Positions 7,380-36,935 of a stretch of DNA of 59,987 nt are shown piece by piece. The translations under genes were made by a program, and so were the position numbers. Within the stretch, counting starts at the first letter, position 1. The number at the start of each line of letters is the position of its first letter. The notes under the pieces were generated by a model. That model made no database searches. It worked only from the letters and a program-made list of their open reading frames with translations, and was not told the DNA's origin. The DNA comes from Burkholderiales bacterium (lineage in GTDB: Bacteria; Pseudomonadota; Gammaproteobacteria; Burkholderiales; Burkholderiaceae_C): contig CANFPU010000009.1 in the NCBI GenBank assembly GCA_947448955.1, forward strand, positions 1-59,987, given 5' to 3'.

Positions 7380-7407
7380 AGGGTGGGTGTTCGAAGAACC
7401 CCGCCCT
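7380..7407 (+). other. Stable hairpin between rpoA and rplQ
   Basis: AGGGTGGG(T)GTTC pairs with GAACCCCGCCCT around a GAA loop: twelve pairs, one bulged T and one G-U. It is followed by CTTGC rather than a U-run, so it is not a clear terminator. It could be a processing site or a partial attenuator that lowers rplQ relative to rpoA. Confidence 0.4.
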
Positions 7408-7462
7408 CTTGCAAACCCCGGTACCTGACACGGCCGAGGTTCTATAACGAAAGGAAAGCACC

Positions 7463-9958: not shown

Positions 9959-10347
9959 GCATTGCGGCGCGTAGAGCGCTACCCCCAGGCGCTGCGGGAT
10001 GCGACTTCAGGATTGACGCCTACCGATGCGTCAGACCATTGACGACATCCAACCCATTCGACTGGTTCTGGTCCTGCATGTCAAACGCACCGATTTGCTG
10101 GGCCAGGCACTGTTCGGCTGGCTAGCGGTCGCCTGCTGCTTCAGTTTGTTAGGCATTAAGAGAGCCATTGCAGTGCGTCCAATGGTTCAAATTCTTCGAA
10201 GCTTCGCCAACTCGTCGATCAACACTTTCTTGTTCTCGGAGTCATCCACAGGGATCTCAATCAGGTGTGAGCCCGACAGGCGTCGGTCTCCTGGTTCAGA
10301 GATTGGGACTGGTCAGCAGTCGCAAGCTCGCGCGCCGCGTCAGGTGC
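9959..10347. other. Intergenic stretch, no gene seen
   Basis: 389 bases between the tRNA terminator and the 3' end of the SulP gene. Short open frames exist but have no ribosome binding site and no recognisable protein character. No clear terminator for the SulP gene was found in it. Confidence 0.6.
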
Positions 10348-12561
10348 TCAGGCTTCGCGGATTTCCCGCAGTTCGGCATTGGTGTGGCGCAGACGGCCTG
10401 CGATGGCGAGCGCGATCGTCTTGACGATGCTGGCGCGAATCTTTTCATTGTCGGCAATGATCTCCTCGAACGCTTCGCGCTCGATGCAAATCAGCTCGGT
10501 CTCGGCGAGGGCGTGCACATTGGCCGAGTAAGGTTGACCGTCCAGAAAAGACATCTCGCCCAGAAACTGACCTCGTCCCAGCGTCGCGAGGTGAACGCTC
10601 TTGCCGTCGCCGAGTGACAGGCTGACCTTGAGCTCGCCCTTGGCAATCAGCATCAGTTGATGGCCGGCCTTACCGGACTCCACGATCAACTCACCGACCA
10701 CCGCGACGCGTGTATGGGCGCACTTTTTGAGCGCAGTGGTCGCATCCTGGGGCAGGTCCTTGAAGATCTCGAACTCGGAAAGCTGAAGGCTGTGTGGCGA
10801 GTCGACCTGGACGCCGGCGGCCTTCAGGATGTCGCCTTCTATCCATTCGAGCGCGTCGCTGAACTCGTCGAAGACCTGCGTGCGCTGGTCAGACAGCAAC
10901 CCGAGGCTCCCGACATAGGCGCGCAGATCCCGTCCACTGGGCAAACGTTGCGGCAAACGGCTCAACACTAGCGTGGCTTGCCGCGCCGCGAGCATTTTTC
11001 CGATGCGCTGGACCATGTGGCCCGCGGTCACATCGAGCGACTGAACCCTGAAAAAATCCAGCAGCAGGTAGCGCGCGTTCTGCAACTCGGCCTCGATCTC
11101 ACCGAATAGCTGATCGGTGGTGCCGAAGAACAGGCTTCCCTGTAGCTCGAAGACGACCGACTGCGCCCCTTCGCGTTCGAGAATCTCTCGCTCGCTGCCG
11201 CTACGAATGCGCTTGGAAAACCGGTGGTTGCCAAAGCTTTTTCTGCGCACCGGCGAGGAATGGATCTGCTCACTGATGAACATCGCCGCCGCCAGTGCAA
11301 TGCCCAAGCCCGAAGCAGCAATCAGGCTGACCGTGTTGGCCACCAGCACGACGGCGACGATGACCATGAAATCCAGCACAGTGTCCCGCCGGCGAACCAT
11401 CTGCAGCGATTTCCAGTCGATCATCCGGATGCCGATGACGATCAGCAGCGCAGCCAGCGCCGGCACCGGAACCCAGGCGATCAGCGGTGTGAGCGCCAGC
11501 ACCGCCAGCAGCGCCCACAAGCCCTGGAAAACCCCCGACAAATAAGTTGAGCCCCCGCTTGCCTTGTTGACCAGCGTTGCGCCCATGGTGCCGGCGCCCG
11601 GCAAACCGCCGATCAAGGTCGACGCGAGATTGCCCAGCCCCTGTCCGACCAACTCACGGTTGGAATTGTGTCGGGTCCCGGTCAGCGCGTCGAGCACGAG
11701 ACAGGTCTTGAGGGTGTCGATCGACAGCAGCACTGACAGCGTCAGTGCCGGCACTAGGACCAGATCCCAGCGGGGCAGAGAGGCTGAGGACAGGCTGGAC
11801 CAGGGACCGGTCAGCGTCGCCACGAACCCGCCGGCGTCGGCCGACAGCTTGCCGATGACCATGCTGTTGTTTTCGAGCGAGAGCAGTTGCGGCCAGCCTG
11901 ACAAGGCCAGCAACCAGTACATCGCGATGCCAGCGATCAAACCCTGGATCACTCCCGGAATGCGCTGCGAGATGCGTGGGGCCAGCAGCATCGCGCCGGC
12001 GGTGGCGCCACCGATCAGCAGCCCGGGCAATTGCCACAGCGAGGGGCTCATCAAGCCTTGCCACCAGCCCATGCCCTTGGGCAGCGCCAGCCACTTCGGC
12101 AATTGGCTCAGGATGATGATCAGGCCCACGCCGCTGAGGTAGCCGCTGATCACCGTGAACGGCATGTACTTGATCAGCCGGCCGATTTTCAGCACACCGA
12201 ACAGGATCTGTGCCACGCTGCTGGTCAGGGCCACCAGGAACAGCGTCAGCACGATCGCGCCAACCGGCAAGCCTTGCTGGCTCAGCTGCATCGTCAACGC
12301 TGAGAGCACGGCCGCGGCAGGCGCGCAGGGGGCCGAGATCAGCCGCTGGGTGCCACCAAAGATCGCGGCGATCAAACCCAGCGCCGTCACGCCGAGCATG
12401 CCCGCCAACGCGCCCTTGGCACCGAATTCGGCGCCTAGCGGCGAAAAAATGCTGACACCAAAGGCGATCGCCGATGGCAGTGCGACCAGCATGGCGGCAA
12501 ATCCACCCCAAACGTCGCCGCCAATCCGGTATGAGGACTTCACAGTGGCGCTGGGTGACAT
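10348..12561 (-). CDS. SulP-family anion transporter with STAS and cyclic-nucleotide-binding domains
   Basis: 737 residues. Residues about 10-425 form a SulP/SLC26 membrane domain of some 10-14 segments (opening GGDVWGGFAAMLVALPSAIAFG, then GLPGAGTMGATLVNKASGGST). About 450-560 are a STAS domain (VVFELQGSLFFGTTDQL). About 600-725 are a Crp-like cyclic-nucleotide-binding fold with RGQFLGEMSFLDGQPYSANV. SulP proteins move sulfate, bicarbonate or dicarboxylates; the substrate cannot be told. In the phosphate-binding cassette the usual Arg (P-R-S/T-A) is Tyr (PYSA), so nucleotide binding is doubtful. It stands alone, divergent from ggt. Confidence 0.88.
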   Translation of the reverse strand: MSPSATVKSSYRIGGDVWGGFAAMLVALPSAIAFGVSIFSPLGAEFGAKGALAGMLGVTALGLIAAIFGGTQRLISAPCAPAAAVLSALTMQLSQQGLPVGAIVLTLFLVALTSSVAQILFGVLKIGRLIKYMPFTVISGYLSGVGLIIILSQLPKWLALPKGMGWWQGLMSPSLWQLPGLLIGGATAGAMLLAPRISQRIPGVIQGLIAGIAMYWLLALSGWPQLLSLENNSMVIGKLSADAGGFVATLTGPWSSLSSASLPRWDLVLVPALTLSVLLSIDTLKTCLVLDALTGTRHNSNRELVGQGLGNLASTLIGGLPGAGTMGATLVNKASGGSTYLSGVFQGLWALLAVLALTPLIAWVPVPALAALLIVIGIRMIDWKSLQMVRRRDTVLDFMVIVAVVLVANTVSLIAASGLGIALAAAMFISEQIHSSPVRRKSFGNHRFSKRIRSGSEREILEREGAQSVVFELQGSLFFGTTDQLFGEIEAELQNARYLLLDFFRVQSLDVTAGHMVQRIGKMLAARQATLVLSRLPQRLPSGRDLRAYVGSLGLLSDQRTQVFDEFSDALEWIEGDILKAAGVQVDSPHSLQLSEFEIFKDLPQDATTALKKCAHTRVAVVGELIVESGKAGHQLMLIAKGELKVSLSLGDGKSVHLATLGRGQFLGEMSFLDGQPYSANVHALAETELICIEREAFEEIIADNEKIRASIVKTIALAIAGRLRHTNAELREIREA

Positions 12562-27197: not shown

Positions 27198-29942
27198 TCA
27201 AACGCCGACCGGCGCGGTTTGCACCATGGCCTTCAGCGCCGGGAGACAGGAGCCGCATTCGGTGCCGCAGCGCAGTCGCTCCTGCAGAGTCTGCAGCCGT
27301 TGCTGCGCGCTGCCGCTGCAATGTGCCAATGCGGCAGCGATGCTGTCCTCGCTGACATCGTGGCAGGCGCAGACCTGCCGGCTGTGGCGCGAAACCGCCA
27401 GCGGTGGTAGCGCGGTGGCCGCCAGCAAGGCGCGACCGAACCCTGCCGCAGGCTGGCCTTGCTGCAGCAGATCGAGGATCCAGCCCTGGGATGCCAGATC
27501 GCCAGCCAACATGAAAGCCTGCAACGAACCGTCGGCCTGCAGCCGCACAGCCCGGCGCTGGCCGCTGCGCGTATCGGCATAGCGCAGTACCGGACCCTGC
27601 GCCAGTTGCAGCGCGTCCTCGATGTCGTCGAGCAGGGCCGCATCCGCTGGCCCACCTAGCGCTGCGCGCAGCAGCAGACCGGTCGCCGGCTCGCGGCCGA
27701 AGAGCACGCAGCTGCCATAGCCCATCCGACCGAACATGGCGCGCAGCCGCTCGCGCGTGGTCAGCACGCAGTCTTCAGGTAACCATGCCGCGGCCACCAG
27801 CTGCCAAGGCAACTCGGCCTTGACCAGCCGAACGGCCGTGTGTTTGAGTTCGGGCTGACCCGACTGCGGGCACCGCGCACCGCTGGTCAGCGCGTTGACG
27901 CCCAGCCCGGTCATGTACTCGGGACCCCAGTGCATGGCAATGAAGGCCTGTGCTGGCAGTACCGATTCGCTGGGTTGGACCGGCAGCACCAGCTTGCCTT
28001 GGCGTGAGCTCACTTGCACCAGGTCGCCGGCCTGCCAGCGCTGGCGTGTCAACTCTTGTGGATGCAGCTCGAGGGCGGGCTCGCTGGCGTGGGCGAACAG
28101 GCGGCCCAGCGTGCCGGTGCGGCTCATGCCGTGCCATTGGTCGCGCAGCCTTCCGGTGGTCAGTGAAACCGGGAAGCGAGCTTCGCGCGGCTCGGCTGTT
28201 GGACGCCACAGCGGCGCTGCAAAACGAGCGCGGCCGTCGGGTGTGGCGAAGCGGCCGTCGCCATACAGCCTGGTCTGGCCGCTGGTGGCGCCGCTGGGGT
28301 ATGGCCACGGCTGAGGCTGCTCCAATCGGGCGTAGCTCAGACCGGTGATGTCGAGGTCGCGGCCTCGGGTGCTTTCGCGGTGCTCGTTCCACACCTGCTC
28401 TGCCGTTTCATAGGGGAACATTGTGGTGCCGTCGAGGCTGCGCGGCGGCAGGCGCCGTTCCAGGCGCCGCGCCAAGTCGCGTGCGATGACCCAGTCGGCA
28501 CGGGCCTGGCCGGGGGCCGGCACTGCGGCGCGTACCCTGCTGATGCGGCGCTCGCTGTTGGTGACGCTGCCTTCCTTTTCGCCCCAGGTGCTGGCCGGCA
28601 ACAGCAGGTCGGCGTGCTCGCCACTGGCGGTGTGGGCATAGGCCTCTTGGACGACGACGAACTCGCAGCGCTGCAGCGCGCGACGCACCGTGGTCTGGTC
28701 GGGCATCGACTGTGCCGGGTTGGTACAGGCGATCCACAGCGCGCGTATCTCGCCGTCGGCAGCCGCTTGGAACATCTCGACCGCTGTCTTGCCCGGCTTG
28801 GCTGGCACCTCGGCCACACCCCATAGCGCAGCCACTTCGGCGCGGTGCGCCGGGTTGCCCAGATCGCGGTGTGCGCTCAGCAGGTTTGCCAGGCCGCCAA
28901 CTTCTCGCCCGCCCATCGCGTTGGGCTGGCCGGTGAGCGAGAACGGGCCCGCACCGGCTTGGCCAATCTGGCCGGTGGCCAGGTGCAGGTTGATCAGCGC
29001 GGTGTTTTTGTCCGTGCCGCTGCTGCTCTGATTTAGCCCCTGGCAGTACAGCGACAGTGTTGGCGTGTGGCCGCCGAACCAGCGCGCGGCCTGGACGATG
29101 TCGTCCTCCCGCAGACCGCAGACCTGGGCCACGTGGCGTGGCGTGAATTCGCGCACCCGGTCTCGCAGTTCGGCAAAGCCGCTGGTGTGGGCAGCGATGT
29201 AGCTTGGGTTGGTCATGCCTTCCCAGAGCAGCAGGTGCATCATGCCGTGGAACAGGGCGACGTCGGTGCCCGGCAGCAGCGGGAGGTGAAGATCGGCCGC
29301 AGCAGCGGTCTCGGTTCGGCGTGGGTCGGCGACGATCCACTTCTGATCCGGATGGATGCGCTTGGCGTCCTCTAGACGCCGCATCAACACCGGGTGGGCC
29401 CAGGCCAGATTCGATCCCGCGATGAAGACCGTCTGCGCAAATTGCAAATCTTCATAACATGAAGGTGGCGCGTCTGATCCCAATGTCGCTTTGTAGCCAG
29501 CGACGGCGCTGCTCATGCACAGGCGCGAGTTGGTGTCGACGTTGTTGCTGCCAATCAGACCTTTGACCAGCTTGTTGAAGACGTAGTAGTCCTCGGTCAG
29601 CAGTTGGCCCGACAGGTAAAAGCCGACGGCTTCTGGGCCGTTCGCCTGGACGATGCTGCCGATGCGATCGGCCGCCAGGTCGAGTGCCGTGTCCCAGCCT
29701 ATCGCGTGAGTCGGGCCACCTCGCGCCAGGCGCTGCAAAGGCTGCAGCAGTCGGGTCTGGCGCGCCAAATGAGGTGCTGCGCTCAGGTGCAGCGTGCTGC
29801 CTTTGGTGCAAAGGCGGCCGAAGTTGGCGGGGTGATCCGGGTCGCCACGAATGCCGGTGATGGTCGGGCCATCGCTGGCGATGATCACACCACAGCCCAC
29901 GCCGCAGTAAGGGCAGGTCGACCGCGTCTCGCGGGTCGCCAT
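27198..29942 (-). CDS. nasA: Assimilatory nitrate reductase, catalytic subunit
   Basis: 914 residues, cytoplasmic molybdenum enzyme that reduces nitrate to nitrite. N-terminal [4Fe-4S] motif CPYCGVGCGV...LCTKG; then the molybdopterin domains with NVDTNSRLCMSSAVAGYK, SNLAWAHPVLMRR, GLNQSSSGTDKNTALINLHLATGQIG and NAMGGREVGG. The last about 60 residues (CACHDVSEDSI...CGTECGSCLPALKAM) form a BFD-like [2Fe-2S] domain, as in Klebsiella-type NasA that takes electrons from a separate or internal reductase. It has no signal peptide. It is the last gene of the operon and starts one base after nirD ends. Confidence 0.95.
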   Translation of the reverse strand: MATRETRSTCPYCGVGCGVIIASDGPTITGIRGDPDHPANFGRLCTKGSTLHLSAAPHLARQTRLLQPLQRLARGGPTHAIGWDTALDLAADRIGSIVQANGPEAVGFYLSGQLLTEDYYVFNKLVKGLIGSNNVDTNSRLCMSSAVAGYKATLGSDAPPSCYEDLQFAQTVFIAGSNLAWAHPVLMRRLEDAKRIHPDQKWIVADPRRTETAAAADLHLPLLPGTDVALFHGMMHLLLWEGMTNPSYIAAHTSGFAELRDRVREFTPRHVAQVCGLREDDIVQAARWFGGHTPTLSLYCQGLNQSSSGTDKNTALINLHLATGQIGQAGAGPFSLTGQPNAMGGREVGGLANLLSAHRDLGNPAHRAEVAALWGVAEVPAKPGKTAVEMFQAAADGEIRALWIACTNPAQSMPDQTTVRRALQRCEFVVVQEAYAHTASGEHADLLLPASTWGEKEGSVTNSERRISRVRAAVPAPGQARADWVIARDLARRLERRLPPRSLDGTTMFPYETAEQVWNEHRESTRGRDLDITGLSYARLEQPQPWPYPSGATSGQTRLYGDGRFATPDGRARFAAPLWRPTAEPREARFPVSLTTGRLRDQWHGMSRTGTLGRLFAHASEPALELHPQELTRQRWQAGDLVQVSSRQGKLVLPVQPSESVLPAQAFIAMHWGPEYMTGLGVNALTSGARCPQSGQPELKHTAVRLVKAELPWQLVAAAWLPEDCVLTTRERLRAMFGRMGYGSCVLFGREPATGLLLRAALGGPADAALLDDIEDALQLAQGPVLRYADTRSGQRRAVRLQADGSLQAFMLAGDLASQGWILDLLQQGQPAAGFGRALLAATALPPLAVSRHSRQVCACHDVSEDSIAAALAHCSGSAQQRLQTLQERLRCGTECGSCLPALKAMVQTAPVGV

Positions 29943-29943
29943 C

Positions 29944-30324
29944 TCAATCCCCGCCGGTCGCGGCGATCGCGATCACGCCAGCGTCGCGGGCATGGTGGCG
30001 CAACTCGCTCGCATCCAGCATCACGATACCGTCTTCGACCTTGACCGCAAAGCGAGCGGCGCAACCGCTGTCGGGCGCGCGGGCTTGGCCGTCAGCCAGT
30101 GCGATGGACCAGTTGTGCAGGGGGCAGGCTACGGCGTGGCCGAAGACGATGCCCTGGCTCAGCGGACCGCCTTTGTGTGGGCAGCGGTCGAGCAGCGCAA
30201 AGATCTGGTCGTCGTCGGTGCGAAACAAGGCCACCGCCGTGGCACCGGCTCGCGCCACGCGCCGCGCGCCGGCACGTGGGATGTCGTCGACGCGGCAGAT
30301 CGCCGTCCAAGGTTGGTCGGTCAT
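29944..30324 (-). CDS. nirD: Nitrite reductase (NAD(P)H) small subunit
   Basis: 126 residues, Rieske-like fold. The cluster-binding motifs are CPHKGGPLSQG and CPLHNW, with full C-x-H and C-x2-H ligands; many enteric NirD proteins lack them, so this copy probably binds a [2Fe-2S] cluster. It partners NirB in reduction of nitrite to ammonium. It overlaps nirB by four bases (ATGA-type coupling) and is followed directly by nasA. Confidence 0.94.
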   Translation of the reverse strand: MTDQPWTAICRVDDIPRAGARRVARAGATAVALFRTDDDQIFALLDRCPHKGGPLSQGIVFGHAVACPLHNWSIALADGQARAPDSGCAARFAVKVEDGIVMLDASELRHHARDAGVIAIAATGGD

Positions 30325-32792
30325 GCCGAATGCTCCGAGCTCAGCGCTTGGAACTGCCGCAGGTCGACCTGGGCCTTGTCGAAGTCAAACCAGGGGTCGG
30401 GTTCGCCGTCCAGGCTGAACTGCAGCCGTTCCCAAAGCGCTTGCCGGCCCGGTGCGTCGTCGAGGATGCGCTGTTTGATCCGGTCGAGTCCGACCCTGGC
30501 GATGTAGTGAACCGTCCGCTCCAGGTACCAGCCTTCTTCGCGGTAAAGCTGCAAGAAGGCGCCGCTATAAGCCAACACCTCCTCGGCGGTTTTGACCTTG
30601 ACCAAGAACTGCGCCACCTCGGTCTTGATGCCGCCGTTCCCGCCGATATGGATCTCCCAACCCGAGTCGACCCCGATCACGCCGACGTCCTTGATGCCCG
30701 ATTCGGCACAGTTGCGTGGGCAGCCGCTGACCGCGAGTTTGACCTTGTGCGGCGCGTACATGCGCCACAGCGCGCGCTCCAGGTCCTTGCCCATCTGCGT
30801 GCTGTCCTGGGTGCCGAAGCGGCACCATTCCGACCCAACGCAGGTCTTGACGGTACGCAGTGCTTTGGCGTAGGCATGGCCGCTGGGCATGGCGATGTCG
30901 CGCCACACGCCGACCAGGTCCTCTTTCTTAACGCCCAGCAAATCGATGCGCTGGCCGCCCGTGACCTTGACGGTCGGGATCTGGTACTTGTCGACAGCGT
31001 CGGCGATGCGGCGCAGTTCGGCTGCACTGGTTTCGCCGCCCCACATGCGTGGGATCACGCTGTAGCTGCCGTCTTTCTGGATGTTGGCGTGAGACCTTTC
31101 ATTGATGAAGCGGCTCTGCGGGTCATCTTTGGCCTGTTTGGGCCAACTGCTGAGGAGGTAGTAGTTGACCGCTGGGCGGCAACTGGCGCAGCCATTGGGT
31201 GTCCGCCAGGCCAGCGCGTTGTAGACCGCCGCGATGCTCAGCAGCCGCTGGTCACGGATCGCCTCGCGCACGGCCTGGTGGCTCAGGTCGGTGCAGCCGC
31301 ACATGGCTTTGAGCCCCGGCGCAGCGCTGTAATCGCCGCCGGCGGTGGCCATCAGCAACTGCTCGACCAGGCCGGTGCAAGAGCCGCAGCTGGCGCTGGC
31401 CTTGGTCTGTTTGCGCACCTCCTCGAGGGTGAACAATCCCTTGTCCTTGATCGCTTTGCAGATGGTGCCCTTGGTGACGCCATTGCAGCCGCAGACCTCG
31501 TCGCTGTCGGCCATGGACGCGGCTCGACTGTGGCCCTGGTGGCCGGTGTCACCAATATTGCTCTCGCCGAACATCAGCTTGTCTCGGATGTCGGCGATCG
31601 AGCGTCCATCGCGCAACAACTTGAAGTACCAGCTGCCGTCCACCGTGTCGCCATACAGGCAGGCGCCGACCAGCTTGTTGCCGGCGATCACCAGTTTTTT
31701 GTAAACCCCGCCCGCAGGGTCGCTCATCACGATCTCGTCGAAGCCGTCGCCACCTTCGAAGTTGCCGGCCGAGAACAGGTCGATACCGGTGACCTTGAGC
31801 TTGGTGCTGGTTTGGCTGCCGGTATAGCGCCCGATACCCAGCTGCGCCAGGTGGGTGGCGCAGACCTTGGCCTGCTCGAACAACGGGGCGACCAGGCCGT
31901 AGGCGATGCCGCGGTGGGCCGCGCATTCGCCGACCGCGTAGATGCGAGGATCGGTGATGGTTTGCAGCGTGTCGCTTACCACCACGCCGCGTTGGCAGTG
32001 CAGTCCCGCTTGCTCGGCCAGCGCGGTGTTGGGGCGAATGCCCGCGGCCATCACCACCAGATCGGCGGGAATTTCGCGGCCGTCGGCCAGTTGCAGCGCC
32101 ATCACCCGACCGCTGGTGCCGTCTGCCTGGTCGCCGATCAGCGCCTGGGTCTGGGCGCCGAGCATGAACCTCAGGCCGCGGTCTTCCAGCGACTTTTGCA
32201 GCAGCCTGGCTGCGGTGCTGTCGAGCTGGCGCTCCATCAACCAGGGCATCAGGTGCACCACGGTGACCTGCATGCCGCGCCGCATCAATCCGTTGGCGGC
32301 CTCCAGCCCCAGCAGGCCGCCGCCTATGACCACCGCATGGCGGTATTTCCCGGCCGCCGCAATCATCGCCTCGGTGTCGGCGATGTCGCGATAGGCGATG
32401 ACACCGGCCAGGTCCCTGCCCGGCACCGGCAGCATGAAGGGCGTCGAGCCAGTGGCCAGAAGCAGCCGATCGTAGTGCGCCTGCGTGCCATCGTCGGCAT
32501 GGACGATTCGCCGAATGCGGTCGATCCGGGTCACGGCCTTGCCGATGTGCAGCGTGATGCCTTGTTGCGCGTACCAAGCCAGCGGGTTAAGCACGATCTC
32601 GTCGATCGTTTGCTCGCCGGCCAGCACTGGACTCAGCAAGATACGGTTGTAGTTGGGATGGGGCTCGGCGCCGAACACGGTGATGTCATGCAACTGCGGC
32701 GCGAGCTTGAGCAACTCCTCGACCGCGCGCACTCCGGCCATGCCGTTGCCCACCACCACGAGGCGAGGGCGCTGCGGCAGATCGTTTTTCAT
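30321..32792 (-). CDS. nirB: Nitrite reductase (NAD(P)H) large subunit
   Basis: 823 residues. Six-electron reduction of nitrite to ammonium in the cytoplasm. N-terminal FAD/NAD domain (LVVVGNGMAGVRAVEELL, later AVVIGGGLLGLEAANGL), BFD-like [2Fe-2S] region (CGCNGVTKGTICKAI...SASCGSCTGLVEQ) at about 425-480, then the siroheme and [4Fe-4S] domain with TCVGSEWCRFGT and SGCPRNCAES. Length and order are standard. It overlaps nrtD upstream and nirD downstream by four bases each. Siroheme synthesis genes are not in the window. Confidence 0.96.
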   Translation of the reverse strand: MKNDLPQRPRLVVVGNGMAGVRAVEELLKLAPQLHDITVFGAEPHPNYNRILLSPVLAGEQTIDEIVLNPLAWYAQQGITLHIGKAVTRIDRIRRIVHADDGTQAHYDRLLLATGSTPFMLPVPGRDLAGVIAYRDIADTEAMIAAAGKYRHAVVIGGGLLGLEAANGLMRRGMQVTVVHLMPWLMERQLDSTAARLLQKSLEDRGLRFMLGAQTQALIGDQADGTSGRVMALQLADGREIPADLVVMAAGIRPNTALAEQAGLHCQRGVVVSDTLQTITDPRIYAVGECAAHRGIAYGLVAPLFEQAKVCATHLAQLGIGRYTGSQTSTKLKVTGIDLFSAGNFEGGDGFDEIVMSDPAGGVYKKLVIAGNKLVGACLYGDTVDGSWYFKLLRDGRSIADIRDKLMFGESNIGDTGHQGHSRAASMADSDEVCGCNGVTKGTICKAIKDKGLFTLEEVRKQTKASASCGSCTGLVEQLLMATAGGDYSAAPGLKAMCGCTDLSHQAVREAIRDQRLLSIAAVYNALAWRTPNGCASCRPAVNYYLLSSWPKQAKDDPQSRFINERSHANIQKDGSYSVIPRMWGGETSAAELRRIADAVDKYQIPTVKVTGGQRIDLLGVKKEDLVGVWRDIAMPSGHAYAKALRTVKTCVGSEWCRFGTQDSTQMGKDLERALWRMYAPHKVKLAVSGCPRNCAESGIKDVGVIGVDSGWEIHIGGNGGIKTEVAQFLVKVKTAEEVLAYSGAFLQLYREEGWYLERTVHYIARVGLDRIKQRILDDAPGRQALWERLQFSLDGEPDPWFDFDKAQVDLRQFQALSSEHSA

Positions 32793-33613
32793 GCGCTCAC
32801 CGCCTCCACATGGGCTTGCTTGCGATACAGGAATTCGAGCACCGCTTCGCGCGCGCCCAGGTAGCCGGCGTGGTGGGCCATCTCCAACCGGTTGCGAGGC
32901 AATTCGCGCACCGGCGGCAGTGGCACGGTCAGCAATTCGCCGACGGTGGCGGCGGGACCGTTGCTCAACATCACGATGCGGTCGCTCAGCAGCACCGCCT
33001 CGTCGACGTCGTGCGTGACCATCATCACGGTGGAGCCGGTGGCCGCGACGATCTTCATCAGCTCGTCCTGCAGCCTGGCGCGTGTCAGCGCATCGAGCGC
33101 CCCGAATGGCTCGTCCATCAGCAGCATCTTGGGCGCCATTGCCAATGCCCGGGCGATGCCCACACGCTGTTTCATCCCACCAGAGATTTCGCCCGGCAGC
33201 TTGTCTGCGGCATGGCTCAAACCCACCAGGTCGAGCGCGGCTAGCGACCGCTCGCGCAGCTGCGACCGGTTCTCGGTCGCGCCGAACACCCGCTCGACCG
33301 CCAGATGCACGTTGCCCAGGCAGCTCAGCCAGGGCAGCAGTGAGTGGTTTTGAAACACCACGCCCCGGTCAGGCCCCGGTCCGCTCAACTCGCGGTCGTC
33401 GAGCAGCATCAGGCCGCTGCTCGGTGTGGTGAGCCCGGCCACCAAGTTGAGTAGCGTGGATTTGCCGCAACCCGAGTGGCCGATCAACGTGACGAACTCG
33501 CCGCGCTGAACCTGGAGCGTGATGTCACGCAGTGCGACAAAAGGCCCGCGCGGGGTTTGGAAGACCATGCCGACATCGGTGATCTGCAGCATGGGTTTAC
33601 GCTGGATGCTCAT
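32789..33613 (-). CDS. nrtD: Nitrate ABC transporter, ATP-binding protein
   Basis: 274 residues. Walker A GHSGCGKSTLLNLVAGL, signature LPGEISGGMKQRVGIARAL, Walker B MLLMDEPFGALD and the switch His in MVTHDVDEAV. It belongs to the nitrate/sulfonate/taurine type and has only one ATPase domain, without the NrtA-like extension of cyanobacterial NrtC. With NrtA and NrtB it forms the nitrate importer. It overlaps nirB by four bases and begins 13 bases after nrtB. Confidence 0.94.
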   Translation of the reverse strand: MSIQRKPMLQITDVGMVFQTPRGPFVALRDITLQVQRGEFVTLIGHSGCGKSTLLNLVAGLTTPSSGLMLLDDRELSGPGPDRGVVFQNHSLLPWLSCLGNVHLAVERVFGATENRSQLRERSLAALDLVGLSHAADKLPGEISGGMKQRVGIARALAMAPKMLLMDEPFGALDALTRARLQDELMKIVAATGSTVMMVTHDVDEAVLLSDRIVMLSNGPAATVGELLTVPLPPVRELPRNRLEMAHHAGYLGAREAVLEFLYRKQAHVEAVSA

Positions 33614-34564: not shown

Positions 34565-35812
34565 TCAGCCCGCGGCGTTGATCTTGAAGCTGTCGGCGTA
34601 GCGGGCCGGGTCTTTGCCGTCCCAGGCCACGCCGTCGATCAGCTTGCTGCTGCGCATCGCTGTCTTGGGCAGGCTGACCTTGAGCTGCGAAGCGGCCTGC
34701 TGGTAGAGCTCAACCTGGTTGACCTGCTTGGCCACGGCCAGGTAGTCGGGGTGTTCCTTGAGCAGGCCCCAGCGTTTGTGCTGGGTCAGGAACCACATCC
34801 CATCGCTGAGGTACGGGAAGTTGACCGCGCCGTCATTGAAGAACTTCATGTGGTTGGTGTCGTCCCAGGTCTTGCCCAGGCCGTTCTGGTAGCGGCCCAG
34901 GATGCGCTGGTTGATCGCATCGACGCTGGTGTTGACCCAGGCCTTCTCGGCGATCGTCTCGGCCATCCGGTTCTTGTTTTGTAGCCCGGCGTCGATCCAC
35001 CGGCTGGCCTCGAGCACGGCCATGATCACGGCGCGTGCAGTGTTGGGGTTTTTCTTGGCGAACTCGCCAGTGCAGCCCAGCACTTTTTCCGGATGATCGC
35101 GCCAAATGTCCTGGGTCGTGGCCGCGGTGATGCCGATGCCGTCGATGATCGCGCGGTGGTTCCAGGGCTCACCGACGCAGTAGCCGTCCATGTTGCCGAC
35201 CCGCATGTTGGCCACCATCTGTGGCGGTGGCACGGTGATGACCTTGGCGTCCTTGACCGGGTTGATGCCCGCCGATGCGAGCCAGTAATACAGCCACATC
35301 GCGTGGGTGCCGGTGGGGAAGGTTTGGGCGAAGGTGTACTCACGCTTGTCAGTTGCCATCAGTTTGGCCAGCGAATGCGCGTCGACCGCGCCTTTGTCGG
35401 CGAGTTTTTTCGACAGCGTGATCGCCTGGCCGTTGTGGTTGAGCGTCATCAGCACCGCCATGTCCTTTTTGGGCCCACCCAGTCCCAGGTGCACGCCGTA
35501 GACCAAGCCGTACAGCACATGGGCCATGTCCAGGTCGCCGTTCACCAGTTTGTCTCGTACGCCGGCCCAGGAGGCCTCCTTGGTCGGGATGATCTTGATG
35601 CCGTATTTCTCATCAAACTTCAGCACTGAAGCCATCACCACGGACGCGCAGTCGGTCAGCGGGATAAAGCCGATGCGAACTTCCTTCTTTTCGGGTGCGT
35701 CGGAGCCGGCTGCCCAGACCGCCGGGTTGACCGCCGCCCCGGCTGCCAGGGTTGCTGATCCTTTGATGAACTGTCTGCGTTCCTGACTCACCAGACCTCC
35801 TGTTTTGGCCAT
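34565..35812 (-). CDS. nrtA: Nitrate ABC transporter, substrate-binding protein
   Basis: 415 residues, NrtA/CmpA family. A twin-arginine signal (RRQFIKGSATLAAGA, residues 12-26) puts it in the periplasm, which separates it from the cytoplasmic nitrate sensor NasS of the same fold. The mature part starts KKEVRIGFIPLTDCASVVMAS and has GYCVGEPWNHRAI and CTGEFAKKNP. The ATG at 35812 follows GGGAGCGATAC; a longer open frame upstream runs through the leader hairpins and is not used. First gene of nrtA-nrtB-nrtD-nirB-nirD-nasA; its leader carries the NasT control elements. Confidence 0.94.
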   Translation of the reverse strand: MAKTGGLVSQERRQFIKGSATLAAGAAVNPAVWAAGSDAPEKKEVRIGFIPLTDCASVVMASVLKFDEKYGIKIIPTKEASWAGVRDKLVNGDLDMAHVLYGLVYGVHLGLGGPKKDMAVLMTLNHNGQAITLSKKLADKGAVDAHSLAKLMATDKREYTFAQTFPTGTHAMWLYYWLASAGINPVKDAKVITVPPPQMVANMRVGNMDGYCVGEPWNHRAIIDGIGITAATTQDIWRDHPEKVLGCTGEFAKKNPNTARAVIMAVLEASRWIDAGLQNKNRMAETIAEKAWVNTSVDAINQRILGRYQNGLGKTWDDTNHMKFFNDGAVNFPYLSDGMWFLTQHKRWGLLKEHPDYLAVAKQVNQVELYQQAASQLKVSLPKTAMRSSKLIDGVAWDGKDPARYADSFKINAAG

Positions 35813-35831: not shown

Positions 35832-35893
35832 AAAAAAAAGGCGTCGCGACTGCAATCGACGAGCCGATGCTCGAAGCCTGCGAGTCGGACGCC
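35832..35893 (-). terminator. Intrinsic terminator in the nrtA leader (antitermination target)
   Basis: On the minus strand GGCGTCCGACT (35893-35883) pairs with AGTCGCGACGCC (35851-35840; one bulged base), enclosing a smaller CGAGC/GCTCG hairpin, and is followed by eight T (35839-35832). It stands 20 bases before the nrtA start, where a normal operon would not end, so it is a conditional terminator. Confidence 0.8.
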
Positions 35894-35933
35894 ATTGCCC
35901 GAACCTGATGTCCCCGGATCGCCATTGATCGGG
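35885..35933 (-). promoter_or_regulatory. Two-hairpin ANTAR-binding RNA element (NasT target)
   Basis: Minus strand: hairpin 1 is GATC-AATGGC-GATC (35930-35917, extended by CC/GG past a mismatch); hairpin 2 is TCGGGC-AATGGC-GTCCGA (35902-35885). Both hexaloops are identical, with A at position 1 and G at position 4, which is the known ANTAR recognition pattern. Hairpin 2 shares bases 35893-35885 with the 5' arm of the terminator, so the two structures exclude each other. Confidence 0.82.
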
Positions 35934-35949
35934 CACTTGGAGCGGTTCA

Positions 35950-35965
35950 TGCACTCTTCGTGCCA
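35950..35965 (-). promoter_or_regulatory. Sigma-54 (-24/-12) promoter of the nrtA operon
   Basis: Minus strand TGGCAC-GAAGA-GTGCA: the GG and GC dinucleotides have the required 10-base spacing and only one base differs from TGGCAC-N5-TTGCA. The start point would be near 35939, so the transcript begins just before ANTAR hairpin 1. The position relative to the leader elements strongly supports it. Confidence 0.75.
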
Positions 35966-36059: not shown

Positions 36060-36644
36060 TCAGGCTGGCGGGCGCAGCAGGTCTCTGGCTTCGATCACCC
36101 GCTCGGCGGCCTGGGCCAGGCGCTGGCCGCGGTCCATCGACAGCTTGCGCAGGTGGCGGTGCGCCTGGTCCTCCGACAAACCGACCTCGCTGATCAGGAT
36201 GGCTTTGGCGCGATCGATCAGCTTGCGTTCGGCCAGCTGTTGCTGTGCATCGTCGAGTTGGCCGCGCAGCGCGTGATCCTGTTCGAAGCGTGCGATCGCC
36301 ACTTGCAGCACCGGCATCAGCCGTTCCGCTTGCAGCCCGGCGATCACATAGGCACTGACCCCTGCGCGCAGGGCTTGTTGCATCGGGGCCTGGCTGGCGT
36401 CCTCGCTGAACACCACCACCGGCCGTGGGCAGGTCGATGACATCGCCGACAGGTTCTCCAGAGTGTCTCGCGAGGGCGACTCGCTGGCCACGATCACCAC
36501 GTCGGGCTGCAACCGCAGCACGCAGTCGTGGATCAGCAATGCAGAGTCGACCACACCGACCACCAGATGGCCCTGATGCGTGAGTTCGTCGTGAATGAGG
36601 CTGATACGGTGTGCGCCGTCGTCGATCAGCAGCACCCGCAGCAT
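36060..36644 (-). CDS. nasT: ANTAR-domain antitermination regulator NasT
   Basis: 194 residues from MLRVLLIDDGAHRISL. Residues 1-120 form a receiver-like domain in which the usual phosphorylation Asp is not obvious, as in known NasT; about 130-190 form the ANTAR RNA-binding domain (LAERKLIDRAKAILISEVGLSEDQAHRHLRKLSMDRGQRL). GVSAYVIAGLQAERLMPVLQVAIARFEQD is a typical NasT link. NasT binds leader RNA and prevents termination of nitrate-assimilation operons; its target lies 130 bases downstream. Longer starts exist (36692, 36707), but homologues begin at MLRVLL. NasS, the usual nitrate-sensing partner, is not in the window. Confidence 0.92.
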   Translation of the reverse strand: MLRVLLIDDGAHRISLIHDELTHQGHLVVGVVDSALLIHDCVLRLQPDVVIVASESPSRDTLENLSAMSSTCPRPVVVFSEDASQAPMQQALRAGVSAYVIAGLQAERLMPVLQVAIARFEQDHALRGQLDDAQQQLAERKLIDRAKAILISEVGLSEDQAHRHLRKLSMDRGQRLAQAAERVIEARDLLRPPA

Positions 36645-36935
36645 TGGCGGTGCCGGGTCTGGCTCGGCGCTCGGTCGGGGGGTAGGGCCCATGCCAAAGT
36701 GCAGCAACTTCCATACCGCCCAGTCAGCGGGCTGCCAACGGCATCGCCGGCCTGCGAAGTCCGGGTCGCTAGGGCATTCCCGCGGGTCATCGCAGCCTTG
36801 AAACCTCTAAAGTCAGCGGTGTTGCTCGGCGCGGACCGATCGCACTGCTGCTCCAAAACTCTCGCCAGACTCTCACGAGACACATTCGAGACCTTTGCCG
36901 CATGCGCCCGCGTGGGCGCCAACTCAAAACTGCCC

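What the first reader, a model, noticed from the sequence alone, without database searches (positions are those of the whole stretch)
35832..35933. Readable NasT antitermination switch: twin AAUGGC hexaloop hairpins overlapping a terminator
The minus-strand leader before nrtA has two hairpins with the same hexaloop (A1, G4) 14 bases apart, the second of which shares nine bases with the 5' arm of an intrinsic terminator with eight T. NasT, an ANTAR protein, is encoded just upstream. The structure alone predicts that NasT bound to the hairpins prevents the terminator from forming.
Basis: partly seen in the sequence, partly recalled or inferred. Interest (0 to 1): 0.7.

Follow-up and report, generated by a model that had tools for sequence, protein, structure and literature searches.

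The report
NasT-type RNA switch before nitrate operon
Just before this bacterium's nitrate-uptake genes sits a short RNA that can fold either into a stop signal or into two small loops that a neighbouring protein probably grips to let reading go on; the switch is of a known kind, but the usual nitrate-sensing partner protein was not found here.

Summary
The minus-strand leader 35933-35832 holds two AAUGGC hexaloop hairpins and an intrinsic terminator whose 5' arm shares nine bases with the second hairpin; 0 of 20,000 shuffles give such a layout. All 25 nasT relatives carry it behind nasT, with strong covariation. A covariance model built without the window finds this leader as the one strong hit in the 4.5 Mb genome (32.1 bits; next 17.6). 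The terminator fold is the more stable one in 26 of 26, so default-off, NasT-dependent antitermination is the best reading; NasT binding is inferred.

It is an ANTAR leader of the Klebsiella nasR-nasF type with REC-ANTAR NasT in place of NIT-ANTAR NasR: a new member of a known kind. Less ordinary: no cytosolic NasS was found in this genome, nor among the related substrate-binding proteins read in 28 family genomes with the leader, so NasT's nitrate input is unknown; and the window NasT has Ala at the phospho-acceptor position. In passing: Rfam's P11 'sRNA' looks like the same kind of leader.

The parts
35951..35965 (-). sigma-54-type promoter: TGG at 35965-35963 (-24), GC at 35952-35951 (-12); expected start of transcription near 35939 (inferred from spacing)
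   Evidence: letters; TGGCACG with a correctly spaced GC begins 36-41 nt before loop 1 in 26 of 26 (window plus 25 relatives). Consensus recalled.
35913..35933 (-). hairpin 1 (P1), loop AAUGGC at 35926-35921
   Evidence: covariation (7 of 8 pairs have changes on both sides, the eighth never varies)
35885..35902 (-). hairpin 2 (P2, antiterminator), loop AAUGGC at 35896-35891
   Evidence: 2 of 6 pairs with changes on both sides, 1 on one side, 3 never vary; closing C-G pair in 26 of 26
35840..35893 (-). intrinsic terminator stem-loop; 35893-35885 shared with hairpin 2
   Evidence: 99.6% of 283 pair cells formed over 26 rows
35832..35839 (-). run of eight T of the terminator
36060..36707 (-). nasT, REC-ANTAR protein (ATG at 36644 is the likelier start, by eye); Ala in place of the phospho-acceptor Asp
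   Evidence: Pfam ANTAR 64.3 bits (cutoff 27.3), Response_reg 27.9 (cutoff 30.2); alignments
34565..35812 (-). nrtA/nasF-type nitrate-binding protein with Tat-like signal (start ATG 35812 or GTG 35791)
   Evidence: NMT1_2 341 bits (cutoff 24.7), TAT_signal 20.9 bits just under its cutoff of 22.7; 61.5% and 57.1% identical to Erwinia and Klebsiella plasmid proteins
33627..34541 (-). nrtB, nitrate ABC permease
   Evidence: TIGR01183 238.2 bits over cutoff 209.05
32789..33613 (-). nrtC/D, nitrate ABC ATPase
   Evidence: TIGR01184 311.9 bits over cutoff 291.8
30321..32792 (-). nirB, nitrite reductase large subunit
   Evidence: TIGR02374 912.7 bits over cutoff 578.35
29944..30324 (-). nirD-like small subunit (named by eye from the translation, no family search)
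27198..29942 (-). molybdopterin oxidoreductase, probably assimilatory nitrate reductase
   Evidence: matches all below curated cutoffs (NasC model 456 bits, cutoff 1100; Fdh-alpha 502.2, cutoff 666.25)

Best explanation
The leader is a nitrate-operon antitermination switch. RNA polymerase with sigma-54 starts near 35939; hairpin 1 folds first; unless hairpin 2 is held, the stronger terminator forms and transcription stops at the T run ending at 35832. Free NasT, made from the gene just upstream, binds the A1/G4 hexaloops through its ANTAR domain and holds hairpin 2, which occupies nine bases of the terminator's 5' arm, so transcription runs into nrtABC-nirB and the genes behind it. Shown here: the sequence, both structures, their conservation and covariation, the promoter-like site, the gene order. 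Inferred: NasT binding, direction of regulation, response to nitrate. The nitrate input to NasT is unknown because no NasS was found.
For: Twin A1/G4 hexaloops in 25 of 25 near-full-length relatives found by nasT alone, each between nasT and an nrtA-like gene (loop 1 of L026 is AGCGTT, all other loops AANGGC). Hairpins: 91.5% of cells paired versus 75.4% shuffled, 9 of 14 pairs changed on both sides, 0 of 500 shuffles reach any of the five measures; terminator 99.6% paired, 4 of 11 pairs changed on both sides. Leave-window-out model R2: 32.1 bits, E 5.4e-5 over the whole genome, next 17.6 bits, E 0.41 (150 of 3496 first-look candidates were scored). Model R1 (window included) in 150 family genomes: the best 29 loci were read besides the window; 28 of 29 lie before an nrtA- or nirB-like gene; of the 25 not in the training set 24 have both hexaloops and a promoter-like site. 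The free fold contains the terminator base in 26 of 26 (all six GGCGTC pairs in 24, five in L024 and L025) and beats the state with both hairpins forced by 4.6-19.5 kcal/mol. Klebsiella nasR-nasF leader has the same parts. NasT binding to the nasA leader and NasT-dependent nas expression are published for Paracoccus (PMC3795266, PMC5424462, passages read); the A1/G4 and overlap rules for EutV (PMC3369931, passages; PMC8934654, passages).
Against: No Rfam family at gathering score. Hairpin 1 of the window is the weakest of the 26 (-2.0 kcal/mol for its 4-bp core). Hairpin 2's two outer pairs are each unpaired in 5 of 26. Two terminator measures are partly matched by shuffles: pairs with double change 29 of 500, further pair types 60 of 500. 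Five or more T directly after the stem in only 17 of 26; in the rest the tract is interrupted, shorter, or set off by one base. The distance between hairpins (10-14 nt here; loops 24-38 nt apart in relatives) tends to exceed the 5-12 nt of the eut leaders, and a 14-nt linker hurt EutV. R1 also returned many weak family hits (60 of 150 genomes at E <= 0.01) that were not read, and one of the 29 read (L078) is spurious. No binding or expression data exist for this organism.
Confidence: 0.86

Rival explanations
1. NasT without NasS is a constitutive antiterminator: control comes only from the sigma-54-type promoter and the NasT level, and the operon does not respond to nitrate. (A rival about the input, compatible with the leader working as described.)
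For: A nasS mutant of Paracoccus expresses nas genes with or without nitrate (PMC5424462 passages); no NasS found in the genome; the only NIT-domain hit in the genome is a 681-residue frame on another contig, and the only ANTAR match is NasT.
Against: The terminator and both hairpins are kept in 26 of 26, which is hard to explain if the switch were always open; about 5% of the genome is missing, so a sensor may have been missed.
Confidence: 0.3
2. A plain terminator between nasT and nrtA that insulates the two genes, the hexaloop hairpins having no function.
For: nasT and nrtA are on one strand, and the terminator sits between them.
Against: The terminator lies downstream of a conserved sigma-54-type site, inside nrtA's own leader; hexaloops with covarying stems in 25 of 25 relatives.
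Confidence: 0.05
3. The terminated RNA is itself a trans-acting small RNA, as claimed for P11 of Pseudomonas aeruginosa.
For: Rfam P11 is the best sub-threshold match at exactly this place (14.5 bits, E 0.45, cutoff 70); 10 of 10 P11 matches found in 274 genomes lie directly before a nirB- or nrtA-like gene.
Against: No target was sought; the conserved letters are those of promoter, hexaloops and terminator arms, while the terminator's apical part varies freely. Not exclusive of the switch.
Confidence: 0.08

Closest known systems
Klebsiella nasR-nasF antitermination leader
   Same: Same gene order (ANTAR gene, leader, SBP, ntrB, ATPase, nirB), sigma-54-type site, hexaloops AATGGC and AAAGGC, overlapping terminator (by eye); SBP 57.1% identical
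   Different: The Klebsiella protein is NIT-ANTAR with its own nitrate domain (PMC3369931 passages); here it is REC-ANTAR without NIT. R1 scores the Klebsiella leader only 11.9 bits, E 0.16
NasS-NasT systems (Paracoccus, Pseudomonas putida, Bradyrhizobium; Methylocella nasT plus signal-less SBP)
   Same: REC-ANTAR NasT controlling nitrate genes through leader hairpins (passages)
   Different: No signal-less NasS found here; nasT stands alone and the SBP behind the leader carries a Tat-like signal
EutV dual-hexaloop leaders (Enterococcus)
   Same: A1/G4 hexaloops, second hairpin overlaps the terminator (PMC3369931, PMC8934654 passages)
   Different: EutV is switched by phosphorylation of an Asp that is Ala in the window NasT; hairpins here tend to lie further apart
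Rfam RF00625 P11
   Same: Matches begin with a sigma-54-type site, hold an AAAGGC or AACGGC hexaloop over a terminator and lie before nirB- or nrtA-like genes in 10 of 10
   Different: Window scores 14.5 bits against a cutoff of 70, so it is not a member by Rfam's rule; Rfam types it as an sRNA gene

Membership tests
ANTAR dual-hexaloop antitermination leader | two hairpins of at least 3 bp with hexaloops, A at 1 and G at 4 | tested here: met
ANTAR dual-hexaloop antitermination leader | second hairpin excludes an intrinsic terminator with a U run | tested here: met
   Nine shared bases, eight T; folds compared
ANTAR dual-hexaloop antitermination leader | structure under selection (covariation) | tested here: met
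ANTAR dual-hexaloop antitermination leader | ANTAR protein in the genome | tested here: met
   One, the neighbour
ANTAR dual-hexaloop antitermination leader | hairpin spacing as in eut leaders (5-12 nt) | tested here: inconclusive
   10 or 14 nt in the window depending on where hairpin 1 ends; loops 24-38 nt apart in relatives
ANTAR dual-hexaloop antitermination leader | binding by the ANTAR protein and dependence of read-through on it | not testable with these tools
   Needs gel shift and reporter
NasS-NasT two-component system | NasT with REC and ANTAR domains | tested here: met
   ANTAR over cutoff; REC 27.9 bits just under its cutoff 30.2
NasS-NasT two-component system | cytosolic NasS, a nitrate-binding SBP without signal peptide | tested here: not met
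   Two NasS/NrtA-like proteins in the genome, both with Tat-like signals by motif and eye; genome 95.16% complete, 6.47% contaminated
NasR-nasF system | NIT-ANTAR regulator | tested here: not met
   The only ANTAR protein lacks NIT
Rfam RF00625 P11 | gathering score of 70 bits | tested here: not met
   14.5 bits
sigma-54 / NtrC nitrogen-controlled promoter | -24 GG / -12 GC with 10 bases between | tested here: met
   26 of 26; consensus recalled
sigma-54 / NtrC nitrogen-controlled promoter | NtrC sites upstream | tested here: inconclusive
   GCACCA in the 220 bases before loop 1 in 24 of 26, its inverse less regular; NtrC consensus recalled

The most novel reading that the evidence does not exclude
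In this Burkholderiales group NasT works without NasS, and the nitrate sensor is the transport protein NrtA itself: as a Tat substrate it folds in the cytosol, where the unexported, nitrate-free form could hold NasT until nitrate arrives. L003 and L014, which have a second NrtA with a Tat-like signal, would show the split of roles: there the protein behind the leader has lost its signal and looks like a home-made NasS.
Probability: 0.12. Interest if true: 0.7.

Novelty: new member of a known kind. Interest (0 to 1): 0.42.

Why it matters
It adds a well-supported leader, with an alignment and a covariance model, to a class for which the Rfam search named no family at gathering score here. More usefully it shows that one kind of leader and operon is served by different sensors in different bacteria (NIT-ANTAR in Klebsiella, NasS-NasT elsewhere, NasT with no visible NasS here), which makes a concrete question testable: what tells NasT about nitrate when NasS is absent? 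The P11 link would also recast an RNA discussed in worm behaviour as the terminated leader of a nitrate operon.

Tried and rejected
Rfam at gathering threshold: no match in the leader, nor at the leaders of ten relatives scanned. Promoter/terminator pattern scan: neither the promoter (it looks for sigma-70 only) nor the terminator (long apical part, bulge) is in its reach. A hidden NasS in the genome: seven NMT1_2 matches, two at E below 1e-50, the next at 4e-22; the second (contig C243, L032) has its own permease gene, a divergent sigma-54 activator-like frame and a Tat-like signal, so it was rejected as NasS; the other five were not read. A sensor gene cotranscribed upstream of nasT: none seen; in 24 relatives plus the window (L014 left out, its contig is short; frames of 120 residues or more, 6 kb) the most widely shared frame, in 10 loci, is a protein of about 1,100 residues on the other strand. 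Other leaders in the same genome: none convincing; the pattern's second hit was not examined further, and the control reading gave one hit. A NIT-domain partner: one NIT hit in the genome, not joined to ANTAR, and none in two of six genomes tested. Against a uniform 'NasT without NasS' picture, NIT-ANTAR proteins were seen by tblastn in at least 4 of the 29 leader-bearing genomes (G020, G053, G097, G122; held flanks only), and G022's ANTAR protein was not read. Two R1 matches in Burkholderia L080 (18.0 and 16.4 bits) score above the Klebsiella leader (11.9) and were not examined. The SBP tree carries long-branch warnings, so the place of Burkholderia's signal-less SBP (L080) is not relied on.

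Literature: the listings, several of them capped far below the number of matching papers (for example 20 of 4,359, 8 of 6,888), showed no paper by title or abstract on NasT without NasS, on P11 as an ANTAR leader, or on ANTAR-PilJ proteins. Marogi et al. 2024 is not held; Romeo et al. 2012 was not looked up. Priority cannot be judged.

Rows dropped: L010 gave no SBP row because its contig ends inside nrtA; the tree left out L087, L088, L089, L092, L103, L105, L106 (taken as duplicates or near-duplicates of rows kept) and L110 (start unreadable), and rows under 300 residues or with N stretches, among them the second NrtA of L003; L027-L030 (partial or distant nasT matches) were used in no leader count; G050 (L078, spurious hit) was left out of the 29 genomes.

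Full report
WHAT IS THERE. Of 20,000 dinucleotide shuffles of the leader, 124 contain two A1/G4 hexaloop hairpins at suitable spacing, 3 with the same loop, none with an overlapping terminator; the window passes the same test.

SURROUNDINGS. Upstream lies a REC-ANTAR protein (ANTAR 64.3 bits, cutoff 27.3; REC 27.9, cutoff 30.2). Downstream on the same strand follow nrtA (NMT1_2 341 bits), nrtB, nrtC, nirB, a nirD-like frame (by eye) and a molybdopterin oxidoreductase that matches nitrate-reductase and formate-dehydrogenase models below their cutoffs. It puts the start of transcription near 35939, about six bases before hairpin 1 (inferred from spacing).

CONSERVATION. A scan of genome contigs with NasT alone returned 29 loci, of which 25 (L002-L026: Rubrivivax, Roseateles, Paucibacter and other Burkholderiales) are near-full-length relatives at 63-81% identity. 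All 25 have two A1/G4 hexaloop hairpins behind nasT and an nrtA-like gene next (in L003 and L014 its signal-less form), and with the window 26 of 26 have the promoter-like site beginning 36-41 nt before loop 1. All loops are AANGGC except loop 1 of L026 (AGCGTT); the closing C-G pair is invariant in both hairpins. For the two hairpins 91.5% of cells form standard pairs (shuffles 75.4%), 9 of 14 pairs have changes on both sides, and none of 500 shuffles reaches any of the five measures; sliding the partner by one column drops pairing to about a third. The terminator is paired in 99.6% of cells with 4 of 11 pairs changed on both sides; two of its five measures are reached by 29 and 60 of 500 shuffles. 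Relatedness inflates such shuffles, so the slid controls weigh more. Five or more T follow the stem directly in 17 of 26; in the others the tract is interrupted, shorter or set off by one base.

INDEPENDENT SEARCHES. A covariance model built from the 25 relatives without the window (R2) finds the window leader at 32.1 bits, E 5.4e-5 over 4.5 Mb, next best 17.6 bits, E 0.41 (150 of 3496 first-look candidates scored). A model with the window (R1) matched 60 of 150 family genomes at E <= 0.01; most of these are weak and were not read. The 29 best loci besides the window were read: 28 lie before an nrtA- or nirB-like gene, one (L078) does not. Four of the 29 repeat training sequences; of the other 25, 24 have both hexaloops and a promoter-like site and 23 a run of four or more T within 80 bases.

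MECHANISM. In 26 of 26 leaders the free fold holds the terminator base (six of six GGCGTC pairs in 24, five of six in L024 and L025) and is 4.6-19.5 kcal/mol better than the state with both hairpins forced, so the default is stop. Hairpin 2 is completed before the terminator's 3' arm is made. A protein holding hairpin 2 would therefore let transcription pass. That ANTAR dimers do this through A1 and G4 of the hexaloops is shown for EutV (PMC3369931, passages; PMC8934654, passages); that NasT binds a nas leader and is needed for nas expression is shown for Paracoccus (PMC3795266; PMC5424462; passages). For this organism binding is inference.

CLOSEST RELATIVE. The window SBP is 61.5% and 57.1% identical to proteins on Erwinia and Klebsiella plasmids. 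There the order is nitrate regulatory protein, leader, SBP, ntrB, ATPase, nirB, and the leaders hold AATGGC and AAAGGC hexaloops and a sigma-54-type site; the overlapping terminators were seen by eye in the same output. R1 scores the Erwinia leader 24.7 bits (E 6e-5) and the Klebsiella one only 11.9 bits (E 0.16), below two unexamined matches in Burkholderia L080. So this is the Klebsiella-type nas layout with a different ANTAR protein.

WHERE IS THE SENSOR? NasR carries its own nitrate domain; NasT elsewhere is held by cytosolic NasS. The own genome has one ANTAR protein, and a search with Methylocella NasS found only two proteins, both NrtA-like with Tat-like signals. In 29 leader-bearing genomes of the family (own included) the same search at E <= 1e-30 gave one or two matches each, 37 in all. 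The start of each was read: 36 show an RR-plus-hydrophobic segment by pattern or eye (L083, L096 and L097 failed the script's motif but show one by eye); the one in G141 (L110) is not readable in frame. More divergent SBPs would be missed by this threshold. G081 (99% complete) has a single NMT1_2 match at E <= 0.001, the Tat-bearing one behind the leader. Eleven of the 29 genomes have a single ANTAR match; in G020 and G097 it is NIT-ANTAR, G022 was not read, leaving eight (own included) with NasT alone (nasT matches). Against a simple picture, at least four of the 29 have a NIT-ANTAR protein at this locus, and G007, G122, G144 and L013 have an extra ANTAR protein close by, with two PilJ stretches confirmed in G007 and G122 and matched by tblastn in the other two. 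Of the 24 relatives with a readable SBP, two (L003, L014) have lost the signal on the protein behind the leader, and a second NrtA with a Tat-like signal follows; the two group together (100/100 support) inside the Tat-bearing clade. This is what a split of a double role would look like, but other histories fit too. The phospho-acceptor Asp, placed by the alignment to EutV, is present in 25 of 25 relatives and is Ala in the window, so phosphorylation at that site cannot be the input here unless the base is an assembly error.

NOVELTY. ANTAR leaders before nitrate and nitrite genes were predicted widely in 2012 (PMC3369931, passages). The switch is therefore a new member of a known kind. The open and testable part is NasT without NasS. 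My paper listings (several capped) showed nothing on it, in a library that lacks most subscription journals.

P11. Rfam P11 matched in 10 of 274 genomes of the class at E <= 0.001, one above its cutoff. All ten lie directly before a nirB- or nrtA-like gene (31-69% identical to the window's), begin with a sigma-54-type site and contain an AAAGGC or AACGGC hexaloop over a terminator; an upstream A1/G4 hairpin of 4 bp or more was found in 7 of the 10. The Erwinia and Klebsiella nasF leaders match P11 at 31.0 and 25.7 bits, also under its cutoff. P11 of PA14 is described as a small RNA regulating the nirB nitrogen operon and read by worms (PMC12080996, passages; PMC10977744, passages). The simplest reading is that it is the terminated leader of that operon. 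I recall that antitermination in this P. aeruginosa operon was reported by Romeo et al. 2012; I did not see that paper.

Noticed in passing
L145-L154; window 35977-35840 minus: Rfam RF00625 P11, typed as an sRNA gene, spans a sigma-54-type site, an ANTAR-type hexaloop and a terminator, directly before a nirB- or nrtA-like gene in 10 of 10 matches: it looks like a cis-regulatory leader, and the worm-read P11 RNA of PA14 may be its terminated product.
   Followed up: partly
L164:1516-2838, L166:1042-2466; L165 and L013 about 10244-11263: A protein with an ANTAR domain followed by two PilJ stretches (related by recall to NarX-type nitrate sensors) lies near the nrt genes in four loci; possibly another nitrate-sensing antiterminator.
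   Followed up: partly
L003:6908-8115, L014 about 1470-2769: The SBP directly behind the leader has lost its Tat signal but keeps a remnant of the cleavage region, and a second NrtA with a Tat-like signal follows: a NasS-like protein apparently derived from NrtA.
   Followed up: yes
window 36707-36060, motif VVIVASESPSRDT: The window NasT has Ala where 25 of 25 relatives have the phospho-acceptor Asp; natural change or assembly error not decided.
   Followed up: partly
L032:1138-2532 minus, also L155-L160, L162: A second NrtA family has a long N-terminal stretch with a C-x-C-G...H-like motif before its twin-arginine segment, and in L032 a divergent NifA/NorR-like sigma-54 activator frame beside it.
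   Followed up: no
window 7380-7442 plus: L17 ribosomal protein leader, 38.0 bits over cutoff 34.9.
   Followed up: no
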